Of a stretch of DNA of 64,000 nt, positions 325 through 56,659 are shown one piece after another. A program made the position numbers and the translations under genes. Positions within the stretch are counted from its first letter, which is position 1, and each line of letters opens with the position of its first letter. The stretch lies in NCBI RefSeq assembly GCF_000787395.1, contig NZ_JRAA01000003.1, positions 372,001 through 436,000 on the forward strand, read 5' to 3'. The notes under the pieces are model-generated. The model had not been told where the DNA came from. It worked only from the letters and a program-made list of their open reading frames with translations, and made no database searches. The stretch comes from Solemya velum gill symbiont. GTDB taxonomy: Bacteria > Pseudomonadota > Gammaproteobacteria > Chromatiales > Chromatiaceae.

Positions 325-415
325 ATTTTAACCCTCACATAGAAAAGTCCCACGCCTTATAAGAGTTATCCGGTATAAGCTACCAGGTAAATAATAAAAG
401 TACTCTGCGTAGCAA

Positions 416-2541: not shown

Positions 2542-2557
2542 AACCTGGAGTAAAACA

Positions 2558-3715: not shown

Positions 3716-3775
3716 AAGCAGGTTTGTGGACCGGAGCGGTTGCATGCTCCGGTCCAGATAATCAGGAGTGAAATC

Positions 3776-4780: not shown

Positions 4781-4793
4781 AAGATGCATCACG

Positions 4794-5687: not shown

Positions 5688-5761
5688 AACAAGAGTGATT
5701 ATCATTGGCACCATGGCAGGGGTGCTAATAACTATCAGGAATAAAGTCTACAATCTATCGT

Positions 5762-5783
5762 GAATTCAATTTCCAAGTGCAAC
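5762..5783 (+). repeat. Left terminal inverted repeat of the IS30 element
   Basis: The repeat starts GAATTCAATTTCC and ends AGTGCAAC. It pairs with the right end at 17 of 22 positions. Confidence 0.7.
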
Positions 5784-5858
5784 TCAACAGAGTTGGTTAG
5801 AGGGCAAGCTGCGGTAGCATAGGTAGCTTCTCTCACCGACCAAAGTTAGAGGAGCACC

Positions 5859-6821
5859 ATGTACACGCAGCTTACCCAGGAAGAACGATACCAGATTCAG
5901 GCACTGATGAAAGCAGGTCACAATCAAACAGAGATAGCCAAGATACTTGGGCGCCACAAATCCACTGTCAGCCGCGAACTGAGGCGTAACCGTGGCTTGC
6001 GCGGCTATCGCCCCAAACAGGCCCATCGGCTGTCTGTAGAGCGCCGTCAGAGCAAGAGCCAGCCCCGTATTGCCACTACCCACTGGGAGCGAGTCGAGCA
6101 TCTGTTGCGCGAGGACTGGAGTCCGGAACAAATCAGCCTGTGGCTGTGCAATGAGGCTGACATTCAAATCTCTCATGAGTGGATTTACCAGTACGTTCTC
6201 CAGAACAAATCCATGGGCGGTAACCTATACCGCCACCTGCGTTGCCAGAAGCAGCGTCGAAAGCGCTATGGCAGCTATAGCCGCCGAGGGCAACTGATTA
6301 ACCGAGTCAGCATCGATGAACGTCCTGCCGTGGTTGATGAGCGTTCACGCTTCGGTGATTGGGAACTTGATACCATTATCGGAAAAGGCCACAAACAGGC
6401 CATCGTTTCAATCACCGAGCGTAAATCCCGATTGACGCTCATCCATAAGGTGGAGAGAAAAACCGCCAGCAACGTCACCAGCGCTATCCTCAAACTGCTC
6501 AAACCCATCGCCGGCCGCGTTCACACGCTGACCTCAGATAATGGTAAGGAATTCGCCGGTCACGAGACCATCGCTAAAGGCCTCAGTGCCAGGTTCTTCT
6601 TTGCCCATCCCTATGCCTCCTGGGAACGTGGCTTGAATGAGAACACCAATGGACTCATTCGCCAATACTTCCCAAAGCATCGGGACTTTACAACCATCAC
6701 TCAGGCGGAAATCAACCAGGTGATGAATAAACTGAACAATCGTCCCCGAAAATGTCTTGGCATTAAAACGCCCAATCAAGTATTTTTCGGGATTAACCCA
6801 TCCGTTGCACTAGTGAGTTGA
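5859..6821 (+). CDS. IS30-family transposase
   Basis: This 320-residue transposase is full length. The N-terminus has the IS30 helix-turn-helix (LTQEERYQIQALMKAG, then EIAKILGRHKSTVSRELRRN). The C-terminal half carries the DDE integrase core: Asp in WELDTIIG, Asp in LTSDNGKEF, and Glu in GLNENTNG. All three catalytic residues and an uninterrupted frame suggest it may still be active. A ribosome binding site (AGAGGAG) precedes the ATG. The stop codon overlaps the right inverted repeat. Confidence 0.93.
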   Translation: MYTQLTQEERYQIQALMKAGHNQTEIAKILGRHKSTVSRELRRNRGLRGYRPKQAHRLSVERRQSKSQPRIATTHWERVEHLLREDWSPEQISLWLCNEADIQISHEWIYQYVLQNKSMGGNLYRHLRCQKQRRKRYGSYSRRGQLINRVSIDERPAVVDERSRFGDWELDTIIGKGHKQAIVSITERKSRLTLIHKVERKTASNVTSAILKLLKPIAGRVHTLTSDNGKEFAGHETIAKGLSARFFFAHPYASWERGLNENTNGLIRQYFPKHRDFTTITQAEINQVMNKLNNRPRKCLGIKTPNQVFFGINPSVALVS

Positions 6822-6825
6822 ATCC
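6804..6825 (-). repeat. Right terminal inverted repeat of the IS30 element
   Basis: Read on the minus strand it begins GGATTCAACTC and ends AGTGCAAC, matching the left end at 17 of 22 positions. It contains the transposase stop codon. Confidence 0.7.
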
Positions 6826-6868
6826 GCGAGAGTATGCAAAACAGAAACAACGAATTAAGGAGAGCATT

Positions 6869-7585
6869 ATGTTGAAACCAAGAATAATCCTCATTACAGC
6901 TTTTGCAGTCGCTTTCCAGACCGCACTAGCCAGTTCAGCCATTGCAGGCGCCACCAAGGGAGCATACTTTGGTGTTGATGTCGGCTACAGTTGGCTAGAT
7001 GACTATACTTACTTTTTAGACGGATCAAGCTCAGGAGATCATCCCACGGACTTTGATGGTGGATTGATTTGGACGCTAAAAGGGGGTTACGGATATGACA
7101 ATGGGTGGCGTGCTGAACTCGAACTAAGTCACAGGGAAAATGATGTGGATAGCTTCAACGATATGGATGGAAGCGGGAGTGTAACGAACACGAGTCTCTT
7201 CCTTAACGCCCTGTATGATTTTGATTCCGGCTCCATGTTTACACCATTCCTTGGTGCTGGTGTTGGCTACATGGATATTGATGTAAACAATGCACGTCAC
7301 ACTGAGCACGATAATCCATTACATTCAAACGGCGGTTGTTGTACTGGCATTGTTGATGGCAGTGATGGTGTCATCGGTATCCAGGGCATTGCTGGTGTTT
7401 CTTACGCTGTCTCTCCGACGGTATCAGTCGTATTGGATGTTCGCTATGTAACCGCACTCAATGATCCAGAGTTTGGATACGGTTATGGCTGTAATTCAGA
7501 TGGTACTGGCTGTGATGGTACTGGCACTTTGGAAATGGACTACTCGAATACATCGGTGAACCTAGGCTTTAGGATGCAATTCTAG
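6869..7585 (+). CDS. Outer-membrane beta-barrel protein
   Basis: This 238-residue protein starts at an ATG preceded by AAGGAGAG; an in-frame start at 6818 lies inside the insertion sequence and is rejected. The first 28 residues form a signal peptide (hydrophobic core, then SAIAGA). The mature part is a series of alternating amphipathic strands rich in Gly, Asp and Tyr. It ends in MQF, the C-terminal phenylalanine typical of barrel proteins, and resembles the OmpA-like or OMP_b-brl eight-strand families. Two cysteine-bearing loops are unusual: GGCCTG near residue 152 and YGCNSDGTGCDG near residue 207. The function is not known. A terminator follows. Confidence 0.8.
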   Translation: MLKPRIILITAFAVAFQTALASSAIAGATKGAYFGVDVGYSWLDDYTYFLDGSSSGDHPTDFDGGLIWTLKGGYGYDNGWRAELELSHRENDVDSFNDMDGSGSVTNTSLFLNALYDFDSGSMFTPFLGAGVGYMDIDVNNARHTEHDNPLHSNGGCCTGIVDGSDGVIGIQGIAGVSYAVSPTVSVVLDVRYVTALNDPEFGYGYGCNSDGTGCDGTGTLEMDYSNTSVNLGFRMQF

Positions 7586-7623
7586 TCACTTTCCTCTGTT
7601 CCTACGGCAACAAGTAGATGAAG

Positions 7624-7649
7624 ACCCCGCCATAGTGCGGGGTTTTTTT
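7624..7649 (+). terminator. Rho-independent terminator after the beta-barrel gene
   Basis: A 7-bp stem ACCCCGC / GCGGGGT with a 6-base loop is followed by a run of seven T residues. It lies about 40 bases after the stop codon. Confidence 0.85.
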
Positions 7650-7770
7650 ATTCCCGATTTTTCGAGAGATTGAATGTCCACTTCTGGCCGAAAGCAGTCA
7701 TTAAGCGTAGCTGTACCGTGCAATTTCATGAACTCACGCCATTAGATGAGCATGAAAATAGTGGTTTTGG

Positions 7771-7792
7771 AGTGTGTAAGCAGTGTGTAAGC
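7771..7792. repeat. Tandem duplication of an 11-base unit
   Basis: The unit AGTGTGTAAGC occurs twice in a row directly next to the tRNA terminator. No function is evident. Confidence 0.6.
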
Positions 7793-7823
7793 AAAAATGA
7801 CTTAGCCAAAACTGGCTAAGTCA
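7793..7823 (-). terminator. Rho-independent terminator of tRNA-Ile2
   Basis: On the minus strand a 10-bp perfect stem TGACTTAGCC / GGCTAAGTCA with a 6-base loop is followed by TTTTT. It begins about 8 bases after the tRNA 3' end. Confidence 0.85.
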
Positions 7824-7831
7824 TTGAAAAG

Positions 7832-7908
7832 TGGTGGGCCGTCAGGGACTTGAACCCCGGACCAAAGGATTATGAGTCCTCTGCTCTAACCAACTGAGCT
7901 AACGGCCC
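7832..7908 (-). tRNA. tRNA-Ile2 (CAT anticodon, lysidine type)
   Basis: The 77-nt cloverleaf has acceptor GGGCCGT / ACGGCCC, a T arm with GGTTCAAGTCC, encoded CCA, and the anticodon loop CTCATAA. A CAT anticodon can be Met or Ile2. Base pairs C4-G69 and C5-G68 are the determinants used by TilS for tRNA-Ile2, and elongator tRNA-Met usually lacks them. E. coli ileX also lies close to rpoD. I therefore call Ile2, decoding AUA after conversion of C34 to lysidine, with elongator Met as the alternative. Confidence 0.85.
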
Positions 7909-7969
7909 TGTGAAGGTGCGCCGGTAGGATAATTGCTTTTTACAGATTATGCTACCGGCGCTTTTTCAT

Positions 7970-9775
7970 TTACTCGTCGAGGAAGCTGCGCAGACGCTCC
8001 GAACGGGTAGGGTGGCGCAGTTTGCGCAGGGCCTTTGCTTCTATCTGGCGAATACGCTCACGTGTTACATCGAACTGTTTACCAACTTCCTCAAGGGTGT
8101 GGTCGGTATTCATGTCGATGCCGAAACGCATGCGCAGGACCTTGGCTTCACGTGCTGTGAGTCCGGAGAGCATGTTCTGGGTTGCTTCACGCAGGCCTTC
8201 GATGGTTGCCGAGTCGATTGGCGTGACTGCGTTTGAGTCCTCGATGAAGTCACCAAGATGCGAATCTTCATCATCACCAATTGGCGTCTCCATTGAGATA
8301 GGCTCTTTGGCAATCTTGAGTACCTTGCGGATTTTGTCTTCCGGCATGTCCATCTTTACAGCCAGCTCTTCCGGTGTTGCGTCGCGCCCCTGTTCCTGGA
8401 CGATCTGGCGCGAGATGCGGTTGAGCTTGTTGATGGTCTCGATCATGTGCACAGGAATACGGATAGTGCGCGCCTGGTCTGCAATCGAACGGGTGATTGC
8501 CTGGCGGATCCACCATGTTGCATAGGTCGAGAACTTGTAGCCGCGACGGTATTCGAACTTGTCGACAGCTTTCATCAGGCCGATGTTGCCTTCCTGGATC
8601 AGGTCAAGGAACTGCAGGCCGCGGTTGGTGTATTTCTTGGCGATCGAGATAACCAGTCGCAGGTTTGCCTCGACCATCTCTTTCTTTGCACGGCGTGCCT
8701 TGGCTTCACCAATCGACATCATGCGGTTGAGCTCTTTGAGCTGGGTGATGCCCAGGCTTGCGTGTTCTGTCACGATCAACAAGCGGTTCTGAATCTTCTG
8801 CACTTCATCAGCAATTTCGAGCAGTGCAGCCTTGGGTGCGCCCTTGGCCTTCGCCTGGATCTTGATCCAGTCGGAGTTTGTTTCATTCTCGGGGAATGAG
8901 GTGATGAACTGTTTGCGCTCCATGCCAGCATCGATACACAGTGCCATGATTTCACGCTCATATGTGCGGATGTTGTTCACTGCGCTTTTGACACGCATGG
9001 TAATCGCGATGAATACGGCAGGGATCAGTTTGAACTCGGTAAAGAATTCTGTGACCTTTTCCTGGCTCTTTTGAGCCTTGGCAGCGTCGCCAGCATCCAT
9101 TGCCTTGCGCAGGGCATTGTAGTTACGCTTCAGTCCGGTAACGCGGCGCTTGGTCTCTTCTGGATCAGGGCCTGTGTCAGCGGGAGTGTCATCGTCGTCA
9201 CTGCTGTTCGCTTCCTGGTCTGCCTTGGAGACAGGCGTTGCAGGTGTCACATCATCGAAGTCAATGAAGCCCGAAATGACGTCGGTTAGCTTGCCTTCCT
9301 CGCTCTGTGCGATTTCGAATCGCTCGAGGAGATCCTCTATAACAGGCGGGTACATTGAAGCAGCCGTGGAGACCTGGCGAAGGCCGTCCTCGATACGCTT
9401 GGCAATGCGCAGTTCGTCTTCACGAGTCAGGAGCTCTACCGTACCCATCTCACGCATATACATGCGTACCGGGTCAGTTGTGCGGCCAAAATCTGTATCA
9501 ACAGAAGCCAGTGCAGCAGCAGCTGCTTCCGCAGCATCATCGTCTGCTGGCGCAGCTTCGTCCATGGTCGTCTCGTCGAGATCGGGTGCTGTCTCGTAGA
9601 CGTTAATTCCCATGTCGTTAATCATGCGAATGATGTCTTCGATCTGCTCCGGATCGACAATCGTATCAGGGAGATGGTCGTTTACTTCAGCATAGGTCAG
9701 ATAGCCCTGTTCTCTTGCTTTATCAATCAGCAGTTTGATCTGGGAGACCTGTTGTGCTTGGTTCATTTGGCTCAT
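7970..9775 (-). CDS. rpoD: RNA polymerase primary sigma factor (sigma-70)
   Basis: The protein is about 601 residues from the ATG at 9775 (MSQMNQAQQ); a GTG six codons upstream gives a longer form but is less typical. Region 1.1 ([14 protein letters not shown]) is at the N-terminus and is followed by a variable acidic spacer. Region 2 holds [20 protein letters not shown] and [20 protein letters not shown]; region 3 and the region 4 helix-turn-helix [20 protein letters not shown] complete it. It directs transcription of housekeeping genes. It is the last gene of the minus-strand rpsU-yqeY-dnaG-rpoD operon, about 110 bases after dnaG. Confidence 0.97.
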
Positions 9776-9885
9776 AAACTGAATTTCCACCACGCAAATA
9801 AAATGGCCTGAAAAGCTAGGCCATGAGACGAACTTAAAAAGAATCAGGTATTATAGTCGGTTATATCTGAATATTCCAGAAGGTT

Positions 9886-11619
9886 TCACCCTTTTACTGC
9901 ATTTTCCCCGTCGTCCAGGAGCTCCCTGAGCTGTTTCTTCTCCTCATCTCCCAGTTGATGCAGGGGGCGGCTGAGCAGTTGCTTCAGCTGCCGCTTCTGA
10001 TATTGGGACGCAAGCTGGCGAAAACAACCGCGTAACTCTTCTGAAAGGCCCTCTTCGGGAATGTCCAGTGGCCCCTGAAGGAGATGCTGCAGATGCTCCC
10101 CAATTGCGCTTCCGTGCCAGTGTGTGACTACTCGAGCGCTGCTTATTTCTGGATTATTTCTAATTAAATCAATGATTTCACTCAGAAGATCGACACCTTT
10201 CACTTGCGCCATTTGCCAACCTTGCCGTGGTTCAAAATCCAGAATCAGCTGTGGGCGTTCGAGCAGAATACGCAGTGCCAGGCGAACCGGGGTGGATGGC
10301 TGCGCCGGGGTTTGGGTGGTCGGCTGTTGTGCCGGTGCGGGTGTCGAATCCGGAGTACGGCTCTCCAACCCGGTAATCTGTTCCAGTTTTCTGTTGAGCA
10401 GGTCTCTCAGCGTACCGGGAGGGATTTTTTCAATGAAGGGTGTAATGGCATCTGAAAAGCGTGCTCGCCCATCCAGAGTGCCGGTATCAATCTGCTGTTG
10501 AAAATGATCAAACAGGTACCCGGAGAGTGGCGGTGCATCCATGAAGCGCTGGCGCAGGGCATCTGAATCCTCCTTGCGTACCAGAGAATCCGGATCCTCT
10601 CCATCGGGAAGAAACAGGAAACGTGCCTCGCGGCCGGCTTTCATCAGCGGCAGAATGGTCTGCAGCGCTTTCCAGGCAGCATCACGTCCGGCACGGTCTC
10701 CATCGAAACAGAAGACCACCTTGTCGACGGTACGAAACAGCAATTCCAGGTGCTTCTCGGTTGTTGCCGTGCCGAGGGTCGCAACAGCGTTGTTAATATC
10801 ATGTTGTGCAAGTGCCACCACGTCCATGTAGCCCTCGACAACAACAAGGTAATCCTCGCCATGGTTTGCACGTCTCGCCTCGTAGAGCCCATAGAGAATC
10901 GTGCCCTTGTGGAACACCGGGGTTTCAGGTGAGTTGAGATACTTGGGTTTGTCGTCGCCAATAATGCGTCCGCCAAAACCGACGACGCGACCGCGTGTAT
11001 CGCGGATCGGGAACATGATGCGATCACGGAAACGGTCATATGGGTTGCCGTTATCACGCTGGCTGCTTAGGCCCGCATTCTCGAAATTACGCAAGGTGTG
11101 TTGCGAGGAGAGTGCACAGAGCAGGTTATCCCATCCCGGTGGCGCGTAGCCGATACCGAAGGTGAGGGCGATTTCGCCGGAGAGGCCGCGCTCTTTCAGG
11201 TAGTCGACAGCACGTTTTCCCTGCTGCTTGTCTTTCAGCTGTTGCTGGTAGAAATTGCTGGCAGCCTCAAGCAAGGCATAGACTGGTTGAAGATCAGGGC
11301 CTTTTTGCACCGAACCGCCTTCATGCGGTACTTCCACTCCCGCCTGCTTGGCGAGTTCCTCGATGGCTTCGACAAAGCTGAGGTGTTCATACTCCATCAG
11401 AAAACCGATCGCGGTTCCATGCGCACCACAGCCAAAGCAGTGATAGAACTGTTTTTGCGGACTGACGGTGAAAGAGGGGGTTTTTTCAGTGTGGAATGGG
11501 CAACAGGCCTGGAACTCACCGCCGGCTTTTTTCAGCGGAACGCGATGCTCCACCACGTCAACAATGTCAACGCGTGCAAGAAGCTGGTCGATAAATTCGT
11601 TTGGGATCCTGCCTGCCAT
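9886..11619 (-). CDS. dnaG: DNA primase
   Basis: This 577-residue primase has the N-terminal CHC2 zinc finger (CCPFHTEKTPSF, then FHCFGCG-type YHCFGCGAHG at about 40-65). The catalytic TOPRIM domain begins at YLVVVEGYMDVVAL near residue 258, with DGDRAGRDAAWKAL following. The C-terminal helicase-binding domain is preceded by a Pro/Gln/Thr-rich linker at about 425-445. It makes RNA primers at the replication fork with DnaB. It is the third gene of the macromolecular-synthesis operon. Confidence 0.97.
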   Translation of the reverse strand: MAGRIPNEFIDQLLARVDIVDVVEHRVPLKKAGGEFQACCPFHTEKTPSFTVSPQKQFYHCFGCGAHGTAIGFLMEYEHLSFVEAIEELAKQAGVEVPHEGGSVQKGPDLQPVYALLEAASNFYQQQLKDKQQGKRAVDYLKERGLSGEIALTFGIGYAPPGWDNLLCALSSQHTLRNFENAGLSSQRDNGNPYDRFRDRIMFPIRDTRGRVVGFGGRIIGDDKPKYLNSPETPVFHKGTILYGLYEARRANHGEDYLVVVEGYMDVVALAQHDINNAVATLGTATTEKHLELLFRTVDKVVFCFDGDRAGRDAAWKALQTILPLMKAGREARFLFLPDGEDPDSLVRKEDSDALRQRFMDAPPLSGYLFDHFQQQIDTGTLDGRARFSDAITPFIEKIPPGTLRDLLNRKLEQITGLESRTPDSTPAPAQQPTTQTPAQPSTPVRLALRILLERPQLILDFEPRQGWQMAQVKGVDLLSEIIDLIRNNPEISSARVVTHWHGSAIGEHLQHLLQGPLDIPEEGLSEELRGCFRQLASQYQKRQLKQLLSRPLHQLGDEEKKQLRELLDDGENAVKG

Positions 11620-11683
11620 TGCCGTAGTTTAACCTACAATGCAGCCAGGTTTGTTGATTGGTATGGCAGCGGGTGTGTCAGGG

Positions 11684-12127
11684 TTAGCCGGTCAGCTTCT
11701 GCTTGACGAGTGCACTGGCTGCACCCATGTCTGCCTTGCCCTGTAACTTGCCCTTGAGCTGTCCCATCACCTTTCCCATGTCCTTGGGGCCGCTGGCACC
11801 AGTTGCAGCGATGATCTCGTCAATCACTGCAGCTACCTCGTCTTCGGACATCTGCTCGGGAAGATATCCCTCGATGATACCGATTTCGTAGGTCTCCTGA
11901 TCAGCGAGTTCAGTGCGGCCAGCATCTGTGTACTGGGTGACTGAATCACGACGCTGTTTGACCATCTTGGTCAGTACACCGGTGATATCCGCATCGGAGA
12001 GTTCTTCCCGCGTATCGACCTCGACTTGCTTGACGGCAGCAAGGATAAGGCGAATAACGCCCAGGCGTGACTTGTCACCACCTTTCATGGCGGCTTTCAT
12101 GTCATCCGTAAGCTGCTGTTTAAGCAT
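11684..12127 (-). CDS. yqeY: GatB/YqeY domain protein
   Basis: This 147-residue protein is a single GatB/YqeY tail domain, with the characteristic segments LGVIRLILAAVKQVEVD and a GKVMGQLKGKLQGKADM motif near the C-terminus. The same fold ends GatB, where it contacts tRNA, but the free-standing protein's role is not established. It sits between rpsU and dnaG, an arrangement common in non-enteric gammaproteobacteria. Confidence 0.92.
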   Translation of the reverse strand: MLKQQLTDDMKAAMKGGDKSRLGVIRLILAAVKQVEVDTREELSDADITGVLTKMVKQRRDSVTQYTDAGRTELADQETYEIGIIEGYLPEQMSEDEVAAVIDEIIAATGASGPKDMGKVMGQLKGKLQGKADMGAASALVKQKLTG

Positions 12128-12176
12128 GAGGGGTACCGGGAGGGTAGAGTCTGTTATCGGTCAGTACAGTATTAAC

Positions 12177-12392
12177 TTAGTACTGACGATCGAAACGACG
12201 GCTTTCGCGAGACACCTTCTTCATGTTGCGCTTGACTGCTGCTGCAGCTTTACGCTTACGCTCGGAAGTTGGCTTCTCGTAGAATTCGCGACGGCGAACC
12301 TCGGCAAGAACGCCTGCTTTTTCACAGGAGCGTTTGAAACGTCGCAGTGCGACTTCAAAGGGTTCGTTATCTTTAACGCGTACGCTTGGCAT
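12177..12392 (-). CDS. rpsU: 30S ribosomal protein bS21
   Basis: The 71-residue, highly basic protein begins [20 protein letters not shown] and has a C-terminus rich in Lys and Arg, identical in plan to other gammaproteobacterial S21 proteins. S21 helps the 30S subunit bind mRNA at the anti-Shine-Dalgarno region. It is the first gene of the rpsU-yqeY-dnaG-rpoD operon, 49 bases before yqeY. Confidence 0.97.
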
Positions 12393-12459
12393 GTCTTTCC
12401 TCAGAAAAGAATCAATTTAATTACCGGTAAATATTGACCGGAAGGCAATAAAGCGCGAA

Positions 12460-12487
12460 ATTGTAGTCGATTTCAGCCAAATTGCAA
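12460..12487 (-). promoter_or_regulatory. Sigma-70-type promoter for the rpsU operon
   Basis: On the minus strand, TTGCAA (12482-12487) and TACAAT (12460-12465) are 16 bases apart, and transcription would start about 60 bases before rpsU. The -10 box matches 5 of 6 and the -35 box 4 of 6. It lies in the 103-base gap shared with tsaD. Confidence 0.55.
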
Positions 12488-12495
12488 AATTTCTA

Positions 12496-13524
12496 ATGAA
12501 GATTCTTGGAATAGAGACCTCCTGCGACGAAACCGGCGTCGCCATTTATGACTCAAATGAGGGTCTGATTGCCAACCTTGTGCATAGCCAGATTGATGTT
12601 CACGCCCCATATGGCGGCGTGGTGCCGGAACTCGCCTCGCGTGACCATGTGCGCAAAACTATCCCGTTAATCAAGCAGTTACTGGTTGAGAGTGGGTTGC
12701 AGGAGAGCGATATCGATGGCGTTGCCTACACCCGTGGACCGGGTTTGGTTGGCGCATTGCTGGTCGGTGCAGCCGTGGGCCGAAGCATCGCCTGGGCCTG
12801 GAATGTGCCCGCGATCGGAATTCATCATATGGAGGGGCATTTACTCGCTCCTTTGCTCGAAAGTCGCCAACCGGCGTTTCCTTTTGTTGCCTTGCTGGTC
12901 TCAGGCGGGCATACACAACTCGTTGAAGTGACCAGTATCGGCGACTATCGTCTGCTTGGTGAATCACTCGATGACGCTGCCGGTGAAGCTTTCGACAAAA
13001 CTGCCAAACTGCTTGGCCTGCCATATCCCGGTGGGCCGGAGCTTGCAAAGCTGGCAGAGCAGGGGGATGCATCCAGGTTCCGTTTTCCTCGCCCGATGAC
13101 AGACCGACCGGGTCTCGATTTCAGCTTCAGTGGCCTGAAGACCTTTGCCCTGAACACAATGCAGGAGCATGAGCCACTCGACGATCAGACCCGTGCCGAT
13201 ATCGCACGTGCATTTGAAGATGCCGTGGTCGACACCCTTGTCATCAAGTGTCGCCGGGCTGTTGAACAGACAAAGGTAACTCACCTGGTGATGGCGGGTG
13301 GCGTCAGCGCCAATCGCCGCTTACGCGAAAAGCTGGAAACAGAGTTGCAGAAAAAGGGTGTTGAGGTGCTCTACCCGCGTCCGGAATTCTGTACGGATAA
13401 TGGCGCCATGATCGCTTTTGCAGGCTGGCAGCGTTTACAGGCGGGCTTGCATGATGAAGATGCCGGCTTCCAGGTAACGCCGCGCTGGCCGATGACTGAG
13501 CTTGAACCTCTGAAAGCAGAGTGA
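12496..13524 (+). CDS. tsaD: tRNA N6-threonylcarbamoyladenosine transferase TsaD
   Basis: This 342-residue ASKHA-fold protein begins [19 protein letters not shown]. It has the metal-binding HMEGH motif (in [13 protein letters not shown], near residue 111), and SGGHTQL and [11 protein letters not shown] nucleotide-binding segments. With TsaB, TsaC and TsaE it installs t6A37 on ANN-decoding tRNAs. It is divergent from rpsU, a conserved arrangement. No strong ribosome binding site precedes the ATG. It ends one base before the convergent plsY gene. Confidence 0.97.
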
Positions 13525-13525
13525 T

Positions 13526-14131
13526 TCAGCCTTTCTGGCCGATCTTTCCCTCGGTACCGTTCAGCAGTCTCTCTATGTTCGTCCTGTGACGCCAGAAGAG
13601 AATCACCGTAATCAGGGTTTGGCATGCAGTAAGAAAAGCGTTGTTCCACTGCAGGTAGACGATTACCGGAGCCATCGCCATGGCTGTCAGTGCTGCCAGT
13701 GACGAGTAGCGAAACAGCAGCGCCATGACCAGCCACACGGCAACCACGCCCAGCCCGGTCAGGAGTGAAAATCCGAACAGCACACCGAGTGCCGTGGCAA
13801 CACCTTTACCGCCCTTGAAACCGAAAAAGATCGGGTAGAGGTGTCCAAGAAATGCAGCGAGTCCGACAAGTGCGATGACATCAAGTGGCTGCTCCAGCAT
13901 CTTTGCAGCGAGAACAGGGAGTAAACCTTTCAGCCAATCTCCGGCCAATGTAATCGCAGCTGCTTTTTTTCCGCCCAGGCGTAATACATTGGTGGCACCT
14001 GGATTTTTTGAGCCCTGTTCACGTGGGTCGGGTAGTCCCATCAGTCGACAAACGATGATGGCGCTCGAAATGGAGCCAACCAGGTAGCCGGCAAGGATTA
14101 GCAGCAGGGCGAATAGGGTTATCTCGGGCAT
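13526..14131 (-). CDS. plsY: Acyl-phosphate:glycerol-3-phosphate acyltransferase PlsY
   Basis: The 201-residue integral membrane protein has about five transmembrane helices and the conserved cytosolic loops GSKNPGATNVLR (about 41-52) and FFGFKGGKGVATALG (about 99-113). It makes lysophosphatidate from acyl-phosphate, the first step of phospholipid synthesis. The chosen ATG gives MPEITLFALL, the usual N-terminus; the longer in-frame extension to 14476 is not family-like. It is convergent with tsaD. Confidence 0.95.
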   Translation of the reverse strand: MPEITLFALLLILAGYLVGSISSAIIVCRLMGLPDPREQGSKNPGATNVLRLGGKKAAAITLAGDWLKGLLPVLAAKMLEQPLDVIALVGLAAFLGHLYPIFFGFKGGKGVATALGVLFGFSLLTGLGVVAVWLVMALLFRYSSLAALTAMAMAPVIVYLQWNNAFLTACQTLITVILFWRHRTNIERLLNGTEGKIGQKG

Positions 14132-14305
14132 TTGGGAAATTAGATTGAACCTGTCATACATGAAGTATGTCAAAAAAGCGCATCCATGACGAACTGTTTG
14201 CGCCATGTTGAGATTCGACATGGCAGTCGTCCGGGTTGGCAGGCATAATCTGCAAAGCAACTTTAAAGTAAAGAATGGAACCCGTTTATACGGGAGAATC
14301 ATCGA

Positions 14306-15739
14306 ATGATCAGAACAATAATTGAAGACAGGTTCAGGAGCAGTATGACAAAGACAGGATCGGCCTTTTTGGGATTGCTGGCCACAATCGCTCTGTTTCC
14401 TCTCGCCGTACAGGCATCCCAGGTTCAGGAGTTTGAACTGGAGAACGGTATGAAAGTGATCGTCAAGGAAGATCATCGTGCACCGATCGCTGTTTCACAA
14501 GTTTGGTACAAGGTTGGTTCTTCCTACGAACCGGAAGGGCAGACAGGTATATCGCATGTCCTTGAGCACTTGATGTTCAAGGGAACAGAGCGTTATGGCC
14601 CGAATGAATTCTCGAAAATCATCTCCGAAAACGGCGGGCGTGAAAATGCCTTCACAGGTCGTGACTACACCGCCTATTTCCAGACACTCTCATCAGACCG
14701 GTTGAATATCGCCTTCGACCTCGAGGCAGATCGCATGCGCAACCTGCTGCTCGACGAGAAAGAGTTTCAGAAAGAGCGCGACGTCGTTACCGAGGAGCGC
14801 CGCCTGCGCACCGAGGATAAGCCAACAGCACTGACTTACGAGCAGTTCAACGCAGTGGCCTGGCGTGTGCTGCCTTATCGTCGCCCCATCATTGGATGGA
14901 TGAGTGATCTCGAGAACCTGAAAATCGAAGACCTGCGCGACTGGTATCAGCTCTGGTATGCACCAAACAACGCAACACTTGTTGTGGTTGGTGACGTTGA
15001 TGCAGAAAAGATTCACACCATGGCGCAGGAGACATTTGGCCAGTTACCTCCGTCTGACCTGCCAGTCATGAAGACGCCTGTCGAGCCTGCACACAATGGT
15101 GTGACGCGCCTGCAGGTCAAGGCACCGGCAAAGCAGCCTTACCTGCTGATGGGCTTCAAGGCGCCGGTTGTTACCACGGTTAGCGAAGAGAATGCATGGG
15201 AGCCATATGCAATGGAGGCGCTTGCAGCTGTTCTGGATGGTGGTGACAGTGCTCGTCTGAGCCGTTCCCTGATTCGTGGCAGCAGTATCGCCAACAGTGC
15301 AGGTGCGAGTTATAACGCCTACACGCGCCTTCCCGGCATGGTGATGTTTGACGGTGTTCCAGCAGAGGGACGCAGTATCAAGGACCTGGAGAAAGCGTTG
15401 CTCTCCGAGATTGAAAAGGTCAAGGCTGAACCGGTTGCAGCAGATGAGCTCAAGCGCGTTGTGACCCAGACTGTTGCCAGCAAGGTGTATGAGAAAGACT
15501 CGGTTTTCTACCAGGCGATGCAGATCGGCATGCTGGAGACAGTCGGACTCGATTGGCGCCTGACTGACAGCTATGTTGAAAAGCTCAGGGCGGTGACTCC
15601 CGAACAGGTGCAGGAGGTTGCACAAAGATACCTGCAACCGGATAACATGACGATTGCCATTCTCGATCCGCAGCCCATGGATGAGAAGCAGGCCGAATCA
15701 AAATCCAGGCCGCATGTGGGGGTGAAGCATGGCTCATAA
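14306..15739 (+). CDS. M16 family zinc metallopeptidase (catalytic member)
   Basis: This protein of about 477 residues contains the inverted zinc motif HVLEHLMF (HxxEH, near residue 89) with the downstream glutamate expected around residue 165 (ERDVVTEERRLR), so it should be active. An N-terminal signal peptide ending AVQAS points to the periplasm. Two starts are possible: 14306, preceded by GGGAGA, and 14345, preceded by AGGAG and giving a cleaner signal peptide. The next gene overlaps by 11 bases and encodes an M16 protein without the zinc site. Pairs like this assemble as an active plus inactive heterodimer in other proteobacteria. The substrate is unknown. Confidence 0.92.
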   Translation: MIRTIIEDRFRSSMTKTGSAFLGLLATIALFPLAVQASQVQEFELENGMKVIVKEDHRAPIAVSQVWYKVGSSYEPEGQTGISHVLEHLMFKGTERYGPNEFSKIISENGGRENAFTGRDYTAYFQTLSSDRLNIAFDLEADRMRNLLLDEKEFQKERDVVTEERRLRTEDKPTALTYEQFNAVAWRVLPYRRPIIGWMSDLENLKIEDLRDWYQLWYAPNNATLVVVGDVDAEKIHTMAQETFGQLPPSDLPVMKTPVEPAHNGVTRLQVKAPAKQPYLLMGFKAPVVTTVSEENAWEPYAMEALAAVLDGGDSARLSRSLIRGSSIANSAGASYNAYTRLPGMVMFDGVPAEGRSIKDLEKALLSEIEKVKAEPVAADELKRVVTQTVASKVYEKDSVFYQAMQIGMLETVGLDWRLTDSYVEKLRAVTPEQVQEVAQRYLQPDNMTIAILDPQPMDEKQAESKSRPHVGVKHGS

Positions 15740-17069
15740 TGGTCGCAGGATTGTCTCCCTGTTGCTGGTGCTTCTGTTACCGCTGACTGCACAGGCAACA
15801 CCTGAAATTCAGTCCTGGATCACAGCCAAGGGCGCCAAGGTGATGTATGTGCATGTGCCTGATCTGCCGATGGTTGATGTGCGCATGGTATTCGATGCAG
15901 GCAGTGCGCGAGATGATAGTAAACCGGGTATTGCTGCACTGACGAATACACTGCTTAACGACGGAGCAGGCGAGTGGAATGCCAACCATTTGGCAGAGCG
16001 TTTTGAAAATATTGGTGCGCGCTTTACCACCAGTTCACTACGCGACATGGCGATTGTCTCGCTGCGTACTTTGACTGATGACGAGGAGGTGTTGAACCAG
16101 AGCCTCGACACCATTGCAGCCGTTGTCACGCAGCCGCAGTTTGACGAGGAAGAGATCGAGCGTCGTCGCCAGCAGGTTCTGGTGGGGCTTGAGCAGCAGA
16201 AACAGAATGCCGGTACTGTCGCCAGTAAAGCCTTCTACAAATCACTTTATGGCGATCACCCGTATGGTCATAACCCGTCCGGAAATGCCGTTAGTGTGGC
16301 GGCGATTACGGTCGAGGATATTCGCAACTATTTCAAGCAGTACTATGTTGCTTCGAACCTTGTTGTTGCCATCGTCGGTGCAGTGGATCGTGCACAGGCA
16401 GAAAAAGTGGTTGAGCAGATTACCGCGGAGATGCCTGCCGGTGAAAAGGCAGCACCGCTGCCGAAGGTCACATTCAGCACGGGCGAAAGCCTCAGTATCG
16501 ACTTTCCCTCGACGCAGACACATATCTATCTTGGTCAGCCAGGCATGTCACGCAGTGACCCTGACTATCTTCCACTTTATGTAGGTAACCACGTATTCGG
16601 AGGCAGCGGCCTGGTGTCAATGTTGTCTGAAGAGGTGCGTGAGAAGCGCGGTCTCTCCTACAGTGTTTACAGCTATTTTTCACCGATGCGCGCTGAAGGT
16701 CCCTTCATGATGGTGGCGCAGACGCGTAATGAACGTGCCGAAGAGGCACTTGGTGTGATGCGTGAACAGCTTGCTGACTTCATTAAAAATGGCCCACCGG
16801 AAGAGCGCCTGGAGCGTTCCAAGAACAATATCAGCGGTGGTTTTCCCCTGCGTGTCTCGTCAAACAGCAAGATTGTTGAGTACATCGCCATGATTGGTTT
16901 CTATGACTACCCGCTCGACTACCTTGCAACTTTTGTCAGCAGGGTTGAGGCTGTCACTGCAGAGCAGATTCATTCAGCATTCAAGCGTCGCGTTCATCCG
17001 AATAATCTCGCCACTGTCCTGGTTGGCAACAGCAGCGAAAACGGCACTCCTGCAGAGAAGCAGGAGTAA
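15729..17069 (+). CDS. M16 family protein lacking the zinc site (partner subunit)
   Basis: This 446-residue protein has a signal peptide (LLLVLLLPLTAQA) and both M16 halves, but where HxxEH should be it reads GIAALTNTLLNDG, so it cannot bind zinc in the usual way. The C-terminal half keeps the Arg/Tyr substrate-binding segment REKRGLSYSVYSYF, typical of the non-catalytic chain. It overlaps the catalytic M16 gene by 11 bases, which favours translational coupling and a fixed 1:1 complex in the periplasm. Confidence 0.9.
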   Translation: MAHNGRRIVSLLLVLLLPLTAQATPEIQSWITAKGAKVMYVHVPDLPMVDVRMVFDAGSARDDSKPGIAALTNTLLNDGAGEWNANHLAERFENIGARFTTSSLRDMAIVSLRTLTDDEEVLNQSLDTIAAVVTQPQFDEEEIERRRQQVLVGLEQQKQNAGTVASKAFYKSLYGDHPYGHNPSGNAVSVAAITVEDIRNYFKQYYVASNLVVAIVGAVDRAQAEKVVEQITAEMPAGEKAAPLPKVTFSTGESLSIDFPSTQTHIYLGQPGMSRSDPDYLPLYVGNHVFGGSGLVSMLSEEVREKRGLSYSVYSYFSPMRAEGPFMMVAQTRNERAEEALGVMREQLADFIKNGPPEERLERSKNNISGGFPLRVSSNSKIVEYIAMIGFYDYPLDYLATFVSRVEAVTAEQIHSAFKRRVHPNNLATVLVGNSSENGTPAEKQE

Positions 17070-33020: not shown

Positions 33021-33920
33021 TTACTCCGATTCTATCTTTTCCAGGTTCTTCTGCGTCACCCTGTAACCGAAATCAATCAGCATCTCTGCCTTGTAGAATT
33101 CGTAGATGGTGCAGATATTAATCGGTATCTTGATCAGCATGTCAGGATGGTAGGCGGCAAGCTGAAAACGCGTAATCAGTGCCTGCATGGTATCGATGGA
33201 TCGGCTGATAATTTCCAGGCTGTCCATATCCTGATGCTCTGGATGCGGCGACTTGAGCTGCAAATTTTCAAGAAAGCTGTCGATATTGCGCCTGTACCAG
33301 TTGTTGTTGGGATTGCTCTTTTCAGGCACTGCTTGTGATGATTCCCTGTTGACAAGATCGTGACGTACCGGGGCTCCTGCGTCAACGGCGAATGTGAATT
33401 GTGTGTTGTCTCGTACAGTCGGTGCGATGGGGACCGGGTTGACGAGGCCACCATCAAGAAGCATGCGTCCGCCTGAATAGACGGGCGTAAATAGTGTCGG
33501 TATGGCAATGGATGCCCGTATCGCATCGAACAGGGGGCCAGACTTTAACCAGACTTCACGCTGCCGGTTGATATCCGATGCGACGGCCGTGTACGAGATC
33601 GGCAGGGATTCAATCTGGTATTCGCCTACCATGTCGCGCAATACAGAGATGATCTTTTCTCCCCTGAAGATGCCGGCACCGATACCGAAGCCCGGGTCAA
33701 GTAGCCTGATGACATCCAGTTTCTCGAGAGCGCATACCCACTTGGCGTAGGCTTCGAGCTTGCCAGTGGCGTAGATGCCACCAATCAGAGCGCCCATCGA
33801 TGAACCTGATATTGACTCGATAGTGTAGCCATTCTCTTCCAGGCAGCGGATCACACCGATGTGAGCAATGCCGCGCGCACCACCACTGCCAAGAACCAGG
33901 GAAACGCTTTTATCTTTCAT
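33021..33920 (-). CDS. Patatin-like phospholipase (RssA-type)
   Basis: This 299-residue protein has the patatin fold: the oxyanion loop GSGGARG (about 11-17), nucleophile serine in GSSMG (about 40-44), and catalytic Asp in DGGLVNPVP (about 155). There is no signal peptide, so it is probably cytoplasmic. It would hydrolyse acyl esters of lipids; the substrate is unknown. Its ATG overlaps the stop of the NapC/NirT-like gene by one base (TAATG), so it is probably the third gene of the cytochrome operon. Confidence 0.85.
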   Translation of the reverse strand: MKDKSVSLVLGSGGARGIAHIGVIRCLEENGYTIESISGSSMGALIGGIYATGKLEAYAKWVCALEKLDVIRLLDPGFGIGAGIFRGEKIISVLRDMVGEYQIESLPISYTAVASDINRQREVWLKSGPLFDAIRASIAIPTLFTPVYSGGRMLLDGGLVNPVPIAPTVRDNTQFTFAVDAGAPVRHDLVNRESSQAVPEKSNPNNNWYRRNIDSFLENLQLKSPHPEHQDMDSLEIISRSIDTMQALITRFQLAAYHPDMLIKIPINICTIYEFYKAEMLIDFGYRVTQKNLEKIESE

Positions 33921-34546
33921 TATCTGAGTCTATCCTTTCCGGCGGGCGAGATAAACCAGACCTGCTGATTAGTCACATCCTCTTCGTCAGCAAGCGGATT
34001 TTTGTGAGCAATGCCCTTGTGGCAGTCGATGCAGGTTTCCTCATCCTTTTCTATCGCTTCCTGCATTTTCTCGGCTGATCTGCGGCGCTGTTCATGGAAG
34101 TTCATCGATTCATAGCTGTGGCAGTTTCGGCACTCATGTGAATCGCTGGCTTCCATGCTTTCCCACACGCGTTCTGCCATGGCAAGACGGTGTTGTTCAT
34201 ACTTTTCTGATGTGTCGATTGTGCCGGCAAGGTGGTGAAAGAGTTCATTGGTTGCCCGAATTTTGCGCAACAACTTGGGGAAAAACTCTTTGGGGACATG
34301 ACAGTCCGAGCATATGGCACGCACACCAGATGCATTTGTGAAATGCACGGACTCCTTGTATTCGGCGTATGCGTAATCATTCATTTCATGACAGGAGATA
34401 CAAAATTCAAGTGTGTTGGTTCGATCCATACTCCAGTTCAAACCATTCCATAGCAGGGTTCCTATCACTATACCGACGATCAGAATCAGGCCCCATCCAT
34501 AACGTGTTGTGGGGCGAAAAAACCATTTCAGGAATTTCTTGATCAA
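33920..34546 (-). CDS. NapC/NirT-family tetrahaem cytochrome c
   Basis: This 208-residue protein has one N-terminal membrane anchor (about 17-36) and four haem c motifs: CISCH, CSDCH, CRNCH and CIDCH, the last followed by KGIAHKNP, a NapC/NirT hallmark. Such proteins take electrons from quinol and pass them to periplasmic reductases. It lies 75 bases after a dihaem cytochrome c gene and is coupled to a patatin gene. The terminal reductase is not in the window. Confidence 0.92.
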   Translation of the reverse strand: MIKKFLKWFFRPTTRYGWGLILIVGIVIGTLLWNGLNWSMDRTNTLEFCISCHEMNDYAYAEYKESVHFTNASGVRAICSDCHVPKEFFPKLLRKIRATNELFHHLAGTIDTSEKYEQHRLAMAERVWESMEASDSHECRNCHSYESMNFHEQRRRSAEKMQEAIEKDEETCIDCHKGIAHKNPLADEEDVTNQQVWFISPAGKDRLR

Positions 34547-34621: not shown

Positions 34622-35322
34622 TTACTCTTTTGGCAGTGTTTGGAGATATGCCAGGATATCGACAGAAACCTGCAGGTCAAAAGCACGCATTGCCGGCATT
34701 TTCTCGTCTGGCTGGCCGTTCAGAGTTTTCTGGATGATTTCCCAGGGGTTCTTGTTGGCCAGTTTGCCAAGTGGAGGCATATCTTTTGGCATCATGCCGT
34801 CCTTGCCGTGGCAGCCTGCGCAGACTGTACCGTAATAACGTGAGCCATTTGCTGCATCACCATTTGCTTTTTTTGATTCGCGCTCAATCACAGCGTCAAT
34901 ATCGATTTGGCCCTTGGTAACAAAGTCTGCGAGGTCGGTGAAGTCCTGTTCATCCATTTTTCCTGCAAAGCCGTGAGTTGCATCTTTCATTGCTGCAATG
35001 ACGACTGCATTATCGGCACCCTGCAGGTGCGTGAGGCCGCCAATGCCGGTTTTATAGGAGCCGGATGCATAGGCACCATCCTTGCCCATCATGTCCCATC
35101 CGTGACAGGACTTGCATCTGTGTGTTGTATCGCCTTTTTTCTTGGTATTTGATGCCGGCCAGGCGGGGTGGGTGTCTGCAGGTTTCTCTGCACCAATAAA
35201 ATAACTTTGAACCACTTGTCATAGAGTTTGCCGCCGCGTGCAATCGAGGCATCGTCGGCAAAGACAAGAACGGGTTGGAACATCAGGGCTGCAGCAAGAG
35301 TTGAAAAAATTATTGTTTTCAT
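34622..35322 (-). pseudogene. Dihaem c-type cytochrome, interrupted by a frameshift
   Basis: The reading frame begins at the ATG at 35322 with a signal peptide (MKTIIFSTLAAALMFQPVLVFA) and runs to about GGKLYDKWFKVI. It then fails and resumes in another frame as GAEKPADTHPAWPASNTKKK. The remainder has two haem motifs, CKSCHGWD and CAGCHGKD. The break is at a tandem pair of the 5-base unit TTATT (minus strand) at 35195-35204. Removing one copy restores KVIGAEKPAD, a continuous frame of about 230 residues. The gene may be truly broken, phase-variable, or affected by a sequencing error. It heads the operon with the NapC-like gene and would act in the periplasm. Confidence 0.85.
35195..35204. repeat. 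5-bp tandem duplication causing the cytochrome frameshift
   Basis: The forward strand reads AATAAAATAA, two copies of AATAA in a row (TTATT on the coding strand). One copy fits the expected reading frame. Confidence 0.8.
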
Positions 35323-35569: not shown

Positions 35570-36429
<860 letters not shown>

Positions 36430-42080: not shown

Positions 42081-42974
42081 ATGCTTTCCGGTTTGCGTGT
42101 CCTAGCAGCTTTTATATTGGCGATTGTAGTTGCCTTGCTTCTCAGCGCGCTGGTGAATGCACCTCTATATGATGCTTTCCCCGAGCTCTCGTCACGGGGG
42201 CCGCATAAGCTGATGAATACCACCGGCAAACTGTTCCTGATACCGATATTCCTGTTTTTACTCGCCTGGTATGGCCTTAACAACAAGCAGGCGCTTGGTT
42301 ATGGCCTTGAGCGCAGGCTCTTCATCGCAGAGTTGTTCAGGGGCCTGCTGATGGGGATTGGCATTCTGTCATTGCTGAGTGTTGTCCTGATTGTTCTCGA
42401 TATCCGCTATCTGAAGCCCATTGGTGACGATTTCGCAATGATCCTGCTGAAGGCGATCATCGGGGGGCTCCTCGGCGGTATTCTCATCGGTTTTATCGAG
42501 GAGACCTTCTTTCGCGGCGGCATCTACGGTGCGATGCGCAAGAATGCCGGCTTTCCTGTTGCCTTGCTGCTATCAAGCCTGCTCTATGGTTCGATGCACT
42601 TTATCAAGCCGCTGCCGCTGCCAGAGGGTGAGCCTCTGCATTGGTACAGTGGTTTCCTGATCTTGCAGGGGAGTTTTGATCAGCTCGCAGACTGGGCGAC
42701 ACTGGACTCATTTATCGGTCTCTTTGCAGTGGGTCTCTATCTTGCTATCGTGCGTGAACGCACTGGTAATCTTGCCTATGTTATTGGCCTGCATGCGGGA
42801 TTCGTTTTCGTGATCAAGGTTGTGCGCAAGATCACCAAGGTCGATTCGAGTGAACCATTGAGTGTTCTGGTTGGCAGCTATGATGGAATGGTGGGTTACC
42901 TGTCGGCGACTGGCCTCTTGATCCATGCAACCCTGACCTGGTTCTTCTGGCGCAGGAACAACAGCTCAAGGTAA
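42081..42974 (+). CDS. CPBP family intramembrane metalloprotease-like protein
   Basis: This 297-residue membrane protein has about seven hydrophobic helices. CPBP/Abi motifs are present: FIEETFFRGG (EExxxR, about 138-147), SLLYGSMHF with a histidine, and IGLHAGFVFV with another histidine. These residues form the presumed active site of Rce1-like proteases. It may process prenylated or signal proteins or have an immunity role; the substrate is unknown. Confidence 0.82.
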   Translation: MLSGLRVLAAFILAIVVALLLSALVNAPLYDAFPELSSRGPHKLMNTTGKLFLIPIFLFLLAWYGLNNKQALGYGLERRLFIAELFRGLLMGIGILSLLSVVLIVLDIRYLKPIGDDFAMILLKAIIGGLLGGILIGFIEETFFRGGIYGAMRKNAGFPVALLLSSLLYGSMHFIKPLPLPEGEPLHWYSGFLILQGSFDQLADWATLDSFIGLFAVGLYLAIVRERTGNLAYVIGLHAGFVFVIKVVRKITKVDSSEPLSVLVGSYDGMVGYLSATGLLIHATLTWFFWRRNNSSR

Positions 42975-43084
42975 TTGCTGCAGTATAACTTTCGTCATGC
43001 CATTCTTGTTTTCGATCAGGTCAGAGACGATGGGTCTGGTGTCATTCCAGGTCAATTAACTCACAACTGAGAAAACAATCGGGC

Positions 43085-43618
43085 ATGCGTACTTTACTCC
43101 TTTCAATATTCATATCCTTTTCAACATGCGCATATGCATTAGATGAAGATGACAAGAATCGTAGTTTATTGCAGTGGTACCAAGGAGAATGGCAACAGGT
43201 TAATGCGGCTGGAGAGTCGTTCTATGGGGGATGTGTTGGTAGAAGAGAAATTGCTAACATTCATGCCTTTCCAAACCTTAAGTACAACTCAACGTATAAT
43301 GGTGTTTTACTCATAAAGGCGAGTGAAGCAAAACCCGATCATCTCTTTTTTTCATCAGCATTGCCCTATATCAATGCGCATTATGATACAAGCGGCATTC
43401 AGCTTCTGGTACCGGTGAAAACAAAATCAAATGCAGTGAAAGTCCCTCTGTCTATAGAGGAGAGTGGCAATTATATGAGAATTCATTTGGCCAGTGAGAT
43501 TCCAGGCATGCCATACAAACGTTATATCGACTTTGAAAATAACCAGCTCAAATTTGTAGCATACGGATCACCCGGGACTGAGAATGAGCGGCCATATTAT
43601 TTTTCCCGTTGCCCGTAG
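43085..43618 (+). CDS. Secreted hypothetical protein, AT-rich
   Basis: I do not recognise this 177-residue protein. A signal peptide is clear (MRTLLLSIFISFSTCAYA, cleavage near residue 18). The mature part looks beta-rich, with cysteines at GGCVG and the C-terminal SRCP that could pair. Its AT-rich codon use, no clear ribosome binding site and the lack of linked genes suggest recent acquisition. Confidence 0.7.
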   Translation: MRTLLLSIFISFSTCAYALDEDDKNRSLLQWYQGEWQQVNAAGESFYGGCVGRREIANIHAFPNLKYNSTYNGVLLIKASEAKPDHLFFSSALPYINAHYDTSGIQLLVPVKTKSNAVKVPLSIEESGNYMRIHLASEIPGMPYKRYIDFENNQLKFVAYGSPGTENERPYYFSRCP

Positions 43619-43664
43619 ATTGATGGGGTCTGATCACATGGCTTTCGTCATGGTGCATCCTCTT

Positions 43665-55225: not shown

Positions 55226-56659
55226 ATGATAAGGACAATCACTGCACCAGTAAGTGCATTTCTGATGACGCTAACTCTTCTGTTCTCTGCAGTTGCGCAT
55301 GCGCAGTTGCCTGATTTTACCGAGCTGGCAGAGAAGAATTCACCTGCGGTGGTGAATATCAGCACTAAGCATAATGGCACATCCGGTAATAAGTCCGGGA
55401 AGCATCATTTTGATATACCCGAGATGCCTGGTGGCGCACCATTTGATGATTTGCTGAAACGTTTTTTTGGTGAGCAGTTCGATTTTGACCAGATGCCTGA
55501 CTTTAAAAGCGAGTCGCTGGGGTCCGGTTTTATTATCAGTGAAGATGGTTATGTCATGACCAATCACCACGTTGTGAATGATGCTGATGAGGTGATTGTA
55601 CGTCTTGCCGACAGGCGCGAATTCACTGCTGAAATTATCGGTTCTGACAAGCAGACTGATGTTGCACTACTGAAAATCGATGCGGATGGACTGCCAACCG
55701 TGAAAGTTGGCAACGGGGCAGATCTCAAGGTTGGTGAATGGGTTCTGGCTATCGGTTCGCCTTTCGGTTTTGATCACTCGGTCACTGCAGGTATTGTCAG
55801 TGCAAAAGGTCGCAGTCTTCCCGAAGAGAACTACGTGCCCTTCATCCAGACGGATGTGGCGATTAATCCGGGTAATTCAGGCGGACCACTATTCAATCTC
55901 GATGGTGAAGTCGTCGGTGTGAACTCCCAGATCTACAGCCGCAGCGGTGGTTTTATGGGGCTCTCATTCTCGATTCCGATCGAGGTGGCAATGAATGTCG
56001 CTGATCAGCTGCGCTCCAAGGGCAAGGTCTCGCGTGGTTGGCTGGGTGTGTTGATCCAGGACGTAACCAGGGAGCTTGCGGAATCCTTCGATATGGAAAA
56101 ACCGATGGGAGCGCTTGTGGCTCGTGTCATGCCTGACAGTCCGGCTGAAAAGGCGGGCATGCAGGTCGGCGATATCATCATTCGTTTCAACGGCAAGCCA
56201 GTTGAGAAGTCATCCAAGCTGCCACCCATGGTTGGCTCGGCAAGTATCGACCGTCCGGCACAGGTTGTTGTGCTGCGCGCGGGTGACGAGAAGACTATCT
56301 CTGTCAATATAGGCGAACTGCCTGATGAGCAGCTTGCCATGCTGGAAAAAGAGCCGCAGCCTGAGCCTGAAGAGAAAGAGACAATTCTGGGTCTCGTGGT
56401 CTCGAACCTGACCCAGATGCAGCGAAATGAACTCGGAATCGCAGAGGGCGGCGTCATCGTCGAAGAGGTGCAGGAGGGACCTGCACGCAAGGCGGGTATT
56501 CGTACTGGTGAAGTCATCGCCATGATCGGGAGTCACCGCATAATGGATGTTGATGATTTCAGGAAGGGAGTAGAAAAACTGCCAAAAGAGAAACCGATTG
56601 CGATCCTGGTACAACAAAAAGAAGGTTCACGCTGGCTGACGCTTCGACTCTCTGATTGA
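55226..56659 (+). CDS. mucD: Periplasmic serine protease MucD/DegP family
   Basis: This 477-residue HtrA protease has a signal peptide ending AHAQ. The triad is His115 in TNHHVV, Asp145 in QTDVALLK and Ser218 in PGNSGGPL. Two PDZ domains follow (about 265-360 and 385-475). It degrades and refolds misfolded envelope proteins, and the position after rseC matches the Pseudomonas algU-mucABCD operon. Confidence 0.95.
   Translation: MIRTITAPVSAFLMTLTLLFSAVAHAQLPDFTELAEKNSPAVVNISTKHNGTSGNKSGKHHFDIPEMPGGAPFDDLLKRFFGEQFDFDQMPDFKSESLGSGFIISEDGYVMTNHHVVNDADEVIVRLADRREFTAEIIGSDKQTDVALLKIDADGLPTVKVGNGADLKVGEWVLAIGSPFGFDHSVTAGIVSAKGRSLPEENYVPFIQTDVAINPGNSGGPLFNLDGEVVGVNSQIYSRSGGFMGLSFSIPIEVAMNVADQLRSKGKVSRGWLGVLIQDVTRELAESFDMEKPMGALVARVMPDSPAEKAGMQVGDIIIRFNGKPVEKSSKLPPMVGSASIDRPAQVVVLRAGDEKTISVNIGELPDEQLAMLEKEPQPEPEEKETILGLVVSNLTQMQRNELGIAEGGVIVEEVQEGPARKAGIRTGEVIAMIGSHRIMDVDDFRKGVEKLPKEKPIAILVQQKEGSRWLTLRLSD

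What the first reader, a model, noticed from the sequence alone, without database searches (positions are those of the whole stretch)
34622..35322. Dihaem cytochrome broken by a 5-bp tandem duplication
Two copies of TTATT in the coding strand shift the frame right after KVI. With one copy the protein reads through as KVIGAEKPAD, so the ancestral frame is clear. The repeat could change copy number by slippage and switch the gene on and off, or this could be a recent loss or assembly error. The downstream frame, NapC-like and patatin genes look intact.
Basis: seen in the sequence. Interest (0 to 1): 0.62.

Follow-up and report, generated by a model that had tools for sequence, protein, structure and literature searches.

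The report
Recently broken dihaem cytochrome gene
A gene for a small electron-carrying protein in what is almost certainly the bacterial partner of the clam Solemya velum carries an extra copy of five bases that throws off its reading frame; close relatives have the intact gene, so this looks like an ordinary, recent gene loss (or an uncorrected sequence error) rather than an on/off switch.

Summary
On the - strand, window 35195-35204 reads TTATTTTATT. With both copies the cytochrome gene (34622-35322) stops after 77 codons, before either CXXCH; with one copy a 231-aa secreted dihaem cytochrome c reads through. The genome matches the published Solemya velum gill symbiont (10 scaffolds, 2.70 Mb). 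The only other same-genus genome held, the S. elarraichensis gill symbiont, has the intact gene (93% identity), and more distant homologues continue in frame across the site, so the two-copy state is derived. dN/dS downstream of the lesion is 0.056, as low as in neighbouring gmk: the break is recent or not real. It is the only frame-breaking indel in window genes over about 45 kb aligned to the sister. The switch idea is weak: 34 two-copy 5-mers occur in the window (about 52 expected), and no relative read has the repeat. Best reading: a recent frameshift in one half of a conserved NapC-like/dihaem-cytochrome pair. The sister draft carries a frameshift in the other half, hinting at parallel decay. 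An unselected dnaX-type A AAA AAG in the overlap could allow leaky full-length protein. Consensus error is not excluded without reads.

The parts
35195..35204 (-). TTATT x2, the frame-breaking 5-bp tandem duplication
   Evidence: absent in the sister (5-bp gap) and in the homologues read
34622..35322 (-). disrupted gene for a secreted dihaem (class I, c4-like) cytochrome c; ancestral product 231 aa
   Evidence: Pfam Cytochrome_CBB3 / Cytochrom_C on the C-terminal haem domain
35089..35322 (-). 5' frame as sequenced: signal peptide region up to KVI, then 36 out-of-frame residues and a stop; no CXXCH
34622..35215 (-). 3' frame (197 aa from GTG, open from 35218): both haem motifs, no signal peptide
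35102..35116 (-). first haem motif CKSCH
   Evidence: read from translation
34808..34822 (-). second haem motif CAGCH
   Evidence: read from translation
35134..35140 (-). A AAA AAG slippery heptamer in the register of the broken frame; a -1 slip here would rejoin the 3' frame (234-aa product as computed)
   Evidence: moderate downstream fold, z -1.39
33920..34546 (-). intact tetrahaem NapC/NirT-family cytochrome, downstream partner in the presumed operon
   Evidence: frameshifted in the sister draft genome
33021..33920 (-). intact patatin-like phospholipase (RssA-like)
35573..36166 (+). divergently transcribed neighbour, guanylate kinase (gmk) by its sequence; used as a control gene for selection
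   Evidence: for the comparison; the gene name is recognised from the translation, not tested by a family search

Best explanation
A 5-bp tandem duplication (TTATT to TTATTTTATT) arose recently, after the split from the S. elarraichensis symbiont, probably by replication slippage. It inactivates the gene for a periplasmic dihaem cytochrome c that normally works with the adjacent NapC-like tetrahaem cytochrome in passing electrons from the quinol pool to a periplasmic acceptor. The main product is a 77-residue peptide without haem sites, and the 3' frame has no export signal, so no holocytochrome is expected apart from possible leakage. Shown: the duplication, the intact sister gene, the conserved pair, the retained constraint. 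Inferred: the slippage origin, the electron path, and that the lesion is real in the population.
For: Duplication and frames. The sister (S. elarraichensis symbiont, NZ_MPRK01000027.1) has a complete 231-aa gene at 93% identity with GTCATAGGC at the site. Some 30 homologues read across the site continue in frame. Downstream of the lesion dN/dS against the sister is 0.056 (whole gene 0.073), close to gmk (0.048) and patatin (0.077), so little time has passed without selection. Amino-acid changes polarised with seven outgroups: 4 on the window branch, 4 on the sister branch, 8 unresolved, so no relaxed branch is visible. Over about 45 kb aligned with the sister this is the only frame-breaking indel that splits a window gene with an intact sister counterpart. 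The dihaem cytochrome followed by a NapC-like gene recurs in many proteobacterial loci.
Against: Low dN/dS is equally expected if the lesion is a consensus error. The published annotation of the matching genome counts 0 pseudogenes (PMC4287430), which may only mean that none were called. A single genome of this species was available. No reads, transcripts or proteins could be examined.
Confidence: 0.68

Rival explanations
1. Consensus or assembly error: the real chromosome has one TTATT and an intact gene.
For: Only one genome of the species is held; everything around the site, including selection, looks as for an intact gene. The scaffolds are a mosaic: Sanger, 454 and 35-nt Illumina contigs were joined, and gaps filled, with PacBio reads corrected using another population, so a junction could keep a short overlap twice.
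Against: A 5-bp non-homopolymer insertion is not the usual error of 454 or short-read data (general knowledge); reported depth is 8x Sanger, 13x 454, 150x Illumina. No other frame-breaking indel was found in window genes over about 45 kb, so consensus quality looks high.
Confidence: 0.2
2. The gene is broken in DNA but still yields some full-length cytochrome: ribosomes slip back one base at A AAA AAG (35140-35134), which lies in the register of the broken frame inside the overlap of the two frames, giving a secreted protein with both haem motifs and about 20 replaced residues.
For: Heptamer, register and direction all fit, and the computed product is open to the natural stop. Transcriptional correction of frameshifted genes at long poly(A) runs is documented in insect endosymbionts (review PMC5009743). 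An in-frame A AAA AAG also occurs in this genome's dnaX.
Against: The run comes from the conserved KKK codons, and AAG AAA AAA G is seen in several intact homologues too, so it was not selected for this. No upstream Shine-Dalgarno-like stimulator is seen; the downstream fold is unremarkable (z -1.39). Six A is shorter than the runs of about nine described for bacterial transcription slippage. The product would lose the strongly conserved THPAWPASNTKK segment.
Confidence: 0.07
3. Reversible slippage switch (phase variation): copy number of TTATT toggles the gene on and off.
For: A second copy makes reversal possible in principle. The published genome contains other short-unit repeats of up to 70 copies. 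A pentanucleotide locus with 1, 2 or 4 units varies between H. influenzae strains (PMC2651432).
Against: Only two copies. Two-copy 5-mers are common (34 in this window), and the H. influenzae study set its threshold at three because two gave 1,676 hits. The repeat is not present in any relative read. A periplasmic respiratory cytochrome is not a typical phase-variable surface target (general knowledge).
Confidence: 0.05

Closest known systems
Recent frameshift pseudogenes of symbiont genomes
   Same: Lineage-specific small indel in an otherwise intact, still-constrained gene; intact orthologue in the sister species.
   Different: This genome is large and not otherwise decayed in the window; only one such lesion in about 45 kb; reality not verified by reads.
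NirT-NirB (tetrahaem NapC/NirT family plus dihaem cytochrome) of Stutzerimonas
   Same: Adjacent pair of a NapC-family tetrahaem protein and a dihaem c-type cytochrome thought to pass electrons in the periplasm (PMC13086519).
   Different: No cytochrome cd1 (Cytochrom_D1, PF02239) found in this genome, the dihaem gene comes first, and NirB itself was not compared by sequence.
Simple-sequence contingency loci (phase variation)
   Same: A short tandem unit whose length is not a multiple of three lies inside a coding frame.
   Different: Two copies only, at chance frequency, not conserved.
Transcriptional or ribosomal correction of frameshifted endosymbiont genes (review PMC5009743)
   Same: An A-run in the right register could restore the frame.
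   Different: Run of six only, not selected, no expression evidence.

Membership tests
Frameshift pseudogene | Frame disrupted relative to an intact orthologue in relatives | tested here: met
   sister and other homologues keep the frame
Frameshift pseudogene | Lesion present in the organism, not just in the consensus | not testable with these tools
   no reads or second genome of the species held
Frameshift pseudogene | Relaxed selection after inactivation (expected of old pseudogenes, not a requirement for recent ones) | tested here: inconclusive
   no relaxation seen: dN/dS 0.056 downstream, branches 4:4; compatible with a very recent lesion, an error or retained function
Phase-variable contingency locus | Repeat array longer than chance (three or more 5-bp units) | tested here: not met
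   two copies; 34 such places in the window against 51.6 expected; TRF finds none here
Phase-variable contingency locus | Copy-number variation among close relatives | tested here: inconclusive
   the sister and other homologues have no repeat at the site; same-species variation could not be tested
NirTB electron-transfer pair | NapC/NirT tetrahaem protein next to a dihaem cytochrome c | tested here: met
   PF03264 match; pair recurs in many loci
NirTB electron-transfer pair | Linked to nirS (cytochrome cd1) | tested here: not met
   no PF02239 match in the genome
Programmed -1 frameshifting | Slippery heptamer X XXY YYZ in the zero frame | tested here: met
   A AAA AAG at 35140-35134
Programmed -1 frameshifting | Stimulatory structure or SD element, conserved | tested here: not met
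   fold z -1.39, no SD-like sequence upstream, intact relatives need no shift

The most novel reading that the evidence does not exclude
The cytochrome gene is broken by the duplication yet rescued at low level by -1 slippage at A AAA AAG, so that the symbiont keeps a reduced amount of an altered dihaem cytochrome; combined with a frameshift in the partner NapC-like gene of the sister symbiont, the same electron-transfer pair is being throttled in parallel in two hosts.
Probability: 0.05. Interest if true: 0.45.

Novelty: new member of a known kind. Interest (0 to 1): 0.2.

Why it matters
If real, it catches an early step of respiratory gene loss in a symbiont whose genome is regarded as little eroded, and it hits one half of a conserved cytochrome pair whose other half carries a frameshift in the sister symbiont's draft genome. 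That would make parallel loss in two hosts directly testable by resequencing. If it is a consensus error, the published gene model needs correction. Either way it is an ordinary event.

Tried and rejected
Same-species genomes are not held (two genomes in the genus). Window 1-17 kb has no long syntenic match in the sister and was left out. A link to cytochrome cd1 was sought and not found. No paper with symbiont expression data for this gene was found, and literature searches for the slippery heptamer found nothing. Internal initiation of the 3' frame at the GTG (35215) was rejected as a source of functional cytochrome: no signal peptide and no Shine-Dalgarno-like sequence seen upstream. The 7-bp and 10-bp gaps in the patatin gene sum to a multiple of three and are not a lesion.

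Full report
What is there. The - strand of window 34622-35322 encodes a cytochrome gene starting at ATG 35322. After the codons for ...W F K V the sequence reads GTT ATT TTA TTG GTG, in which TTATT occurs twice (35204-35195). As written, the frame ends at TGA (35091-35089) after 77 residues and contains no haem site. With one copy it encodes one 231-aa protein with a signal-peptide-like N-terminus and two CXXCH motifs (35102-35116 and 34808-34822).

Chance. A 5-bp unit present twice is not unusual: 34 such places in the window against a mean of 51.6 in first-order Markov sequences, and Tandem Repeats Finder does not report it. What makes it meaningful is that it breaks a conserved frame.

Which organism. 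The window lies in a 2,702,377-base genome in 10 contigs, with contigs of 892,555 and 537,613 bases. This fits the published gill symbiont of Solemya velum: 10 scaffolds, 2,702,453 bp, the largest of 1.21, 0.89 and 0.54 Mb (PMC4287430). The only other genome held in the genus is the Solemya elarraichensis gill symbiont, matched to record NZ_MPRK01000027.1. The identification of the window's own genome is an inference from size and kinship.

Ancestral state. The S. elarraichensis symbiont has a complete 231-aa gene, 93% identical, with GTCATAGGC at the site and a 5-bp gap opposite the duplication. About thirty further homologues from Gammaproteobacteria, Alphaproteobacteria and others run in frame across the site. 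So the second copy is derived and specific to the window's lineage.

How old. Against the sister, dN/dS is 0.073 for the whole gene and 0.056 for the part downstream of the lesion, similar to the neighbours gmk (0.048), patatin (0.077) and the NapC-like core (0.113). Amino-acid differences polarised with seven outgroups fall 4 to the window branch and 4 to the sister branch, 8 unresolved. Nothing suggests a long period without selection. The lesion is recent, or it is an error, or some function persists.

Is it an error? About 45 kb of the window aligns to sister contigs. Within it this is the only indel that splits a window gene whose sister counterpart is intact, so the consensus looks good. 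The published assembly used Sanger 8x, 454 13x, Illumina 150x, then PacBio for joining. A 5-bp tandem insertion is not a typical error of those, but a badly merged junction is possible. Reads would settle it, and none could be examined here.

Is it a switch? Two copies, at chance frequency, absent from all relatives read. In H. influenzae, analysts required at least three pentanucleotide units because two units occur 1,676 times (PMC2651432). The same paper does list a pentanucleotide locus varying between one, two and four units, so the idea cannot be excluded outright, but nothing here supports it.

What was lost. The gene is followed by an intact NapC/NirT-family tetrahaem cytochrome and an RssA-like patatin. 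The dihaem-cytochrome/NapC-like pair recurs in many proteobacterial loci, which supports a shared role: quinol to NapC-like to dihaem cytochrome to a periplasmic acceptor. That path is inferred from the families. It resembles NirT-NirB (PMC13086519), but no cytochrome cd1 was found in this genome. The genome has two other NapC-like genes at 54-55% identity plus a more distant one, but no close second copy of the dihaem cytochrome (next best 36% over 78 residues).

Unexpected parallel. In the sister's draft genome the cytochrome is intact, but the NapC-like gene shows a 1-base deletion near its start and a 1-base insertion near its end relative to the window. A start in the other frame could still give a membrane anchor, and a draft-genome error is possible. 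If real, each lineage has damaged a different half of the same pair.

Possible leakage. In the broken frame the KKK codons are read as AGA AAA AAG, which forms the dnaX-type heptamer A AAA AAG at 35140-35134, inside the overlap of the two open frames (35218 to 35092). A -1 slip there gives a product with signal peptide and both haem motifs, 234 characters with the stop as computed. The run follows from conserved lysine codons, and the same AAG AAA AAA G occurs in several intact homologues, so it is a coincidence and not a selected signal. The downstream fold is unremarkable (z -1.39). The slip product would lack the strongly conserved THPAWPASNTKK segment. I give this 7%.

Verdict. An ordinary, recent, lineage-specific frameshift (about 0.68), with consensus error as the main rival (about 0.20), leaky rescue (about 0.07) and phase variation (about 0.05) less likely.

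Noticed in passing
L022 about 7354 and 7868 (window positions 33976 and 34489): In the S. elarraichensis symbiont draft the NapC-like gene has a 1-base deletion near its start and a 1-base insertion near its end relative to the window, while its dihaem cytochrome is intact: the opposite half of the pair is frameshifted.
   Followed up: partly
window 55226-56659; L084 about 858: The sister has a 2-base deletion in a trypsin-like/PDZ (Deg-type) protease gene that is open in the window (477 aa).
   Followed up: partly
L089 (G000:C1:213703-214761 region), dnaX codons about 373 and 398: dnaX of this genome carries an A9 run and a separate in-frame A AAA AAG, so dnaX may use slippage or frameshifting here.
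   Followed up: no
window 1-16953: The first 17 kb of the window has no long syntenic match in the sister genome, only short or about 70% identical pieces: likely lineage-specific DNA or a gap in the sister draft.
   Followed up: no
window 42965-43664: About 0.7 kb between two syntenic blocks is present in the window and missing in the sister contig.
   Followed up: no
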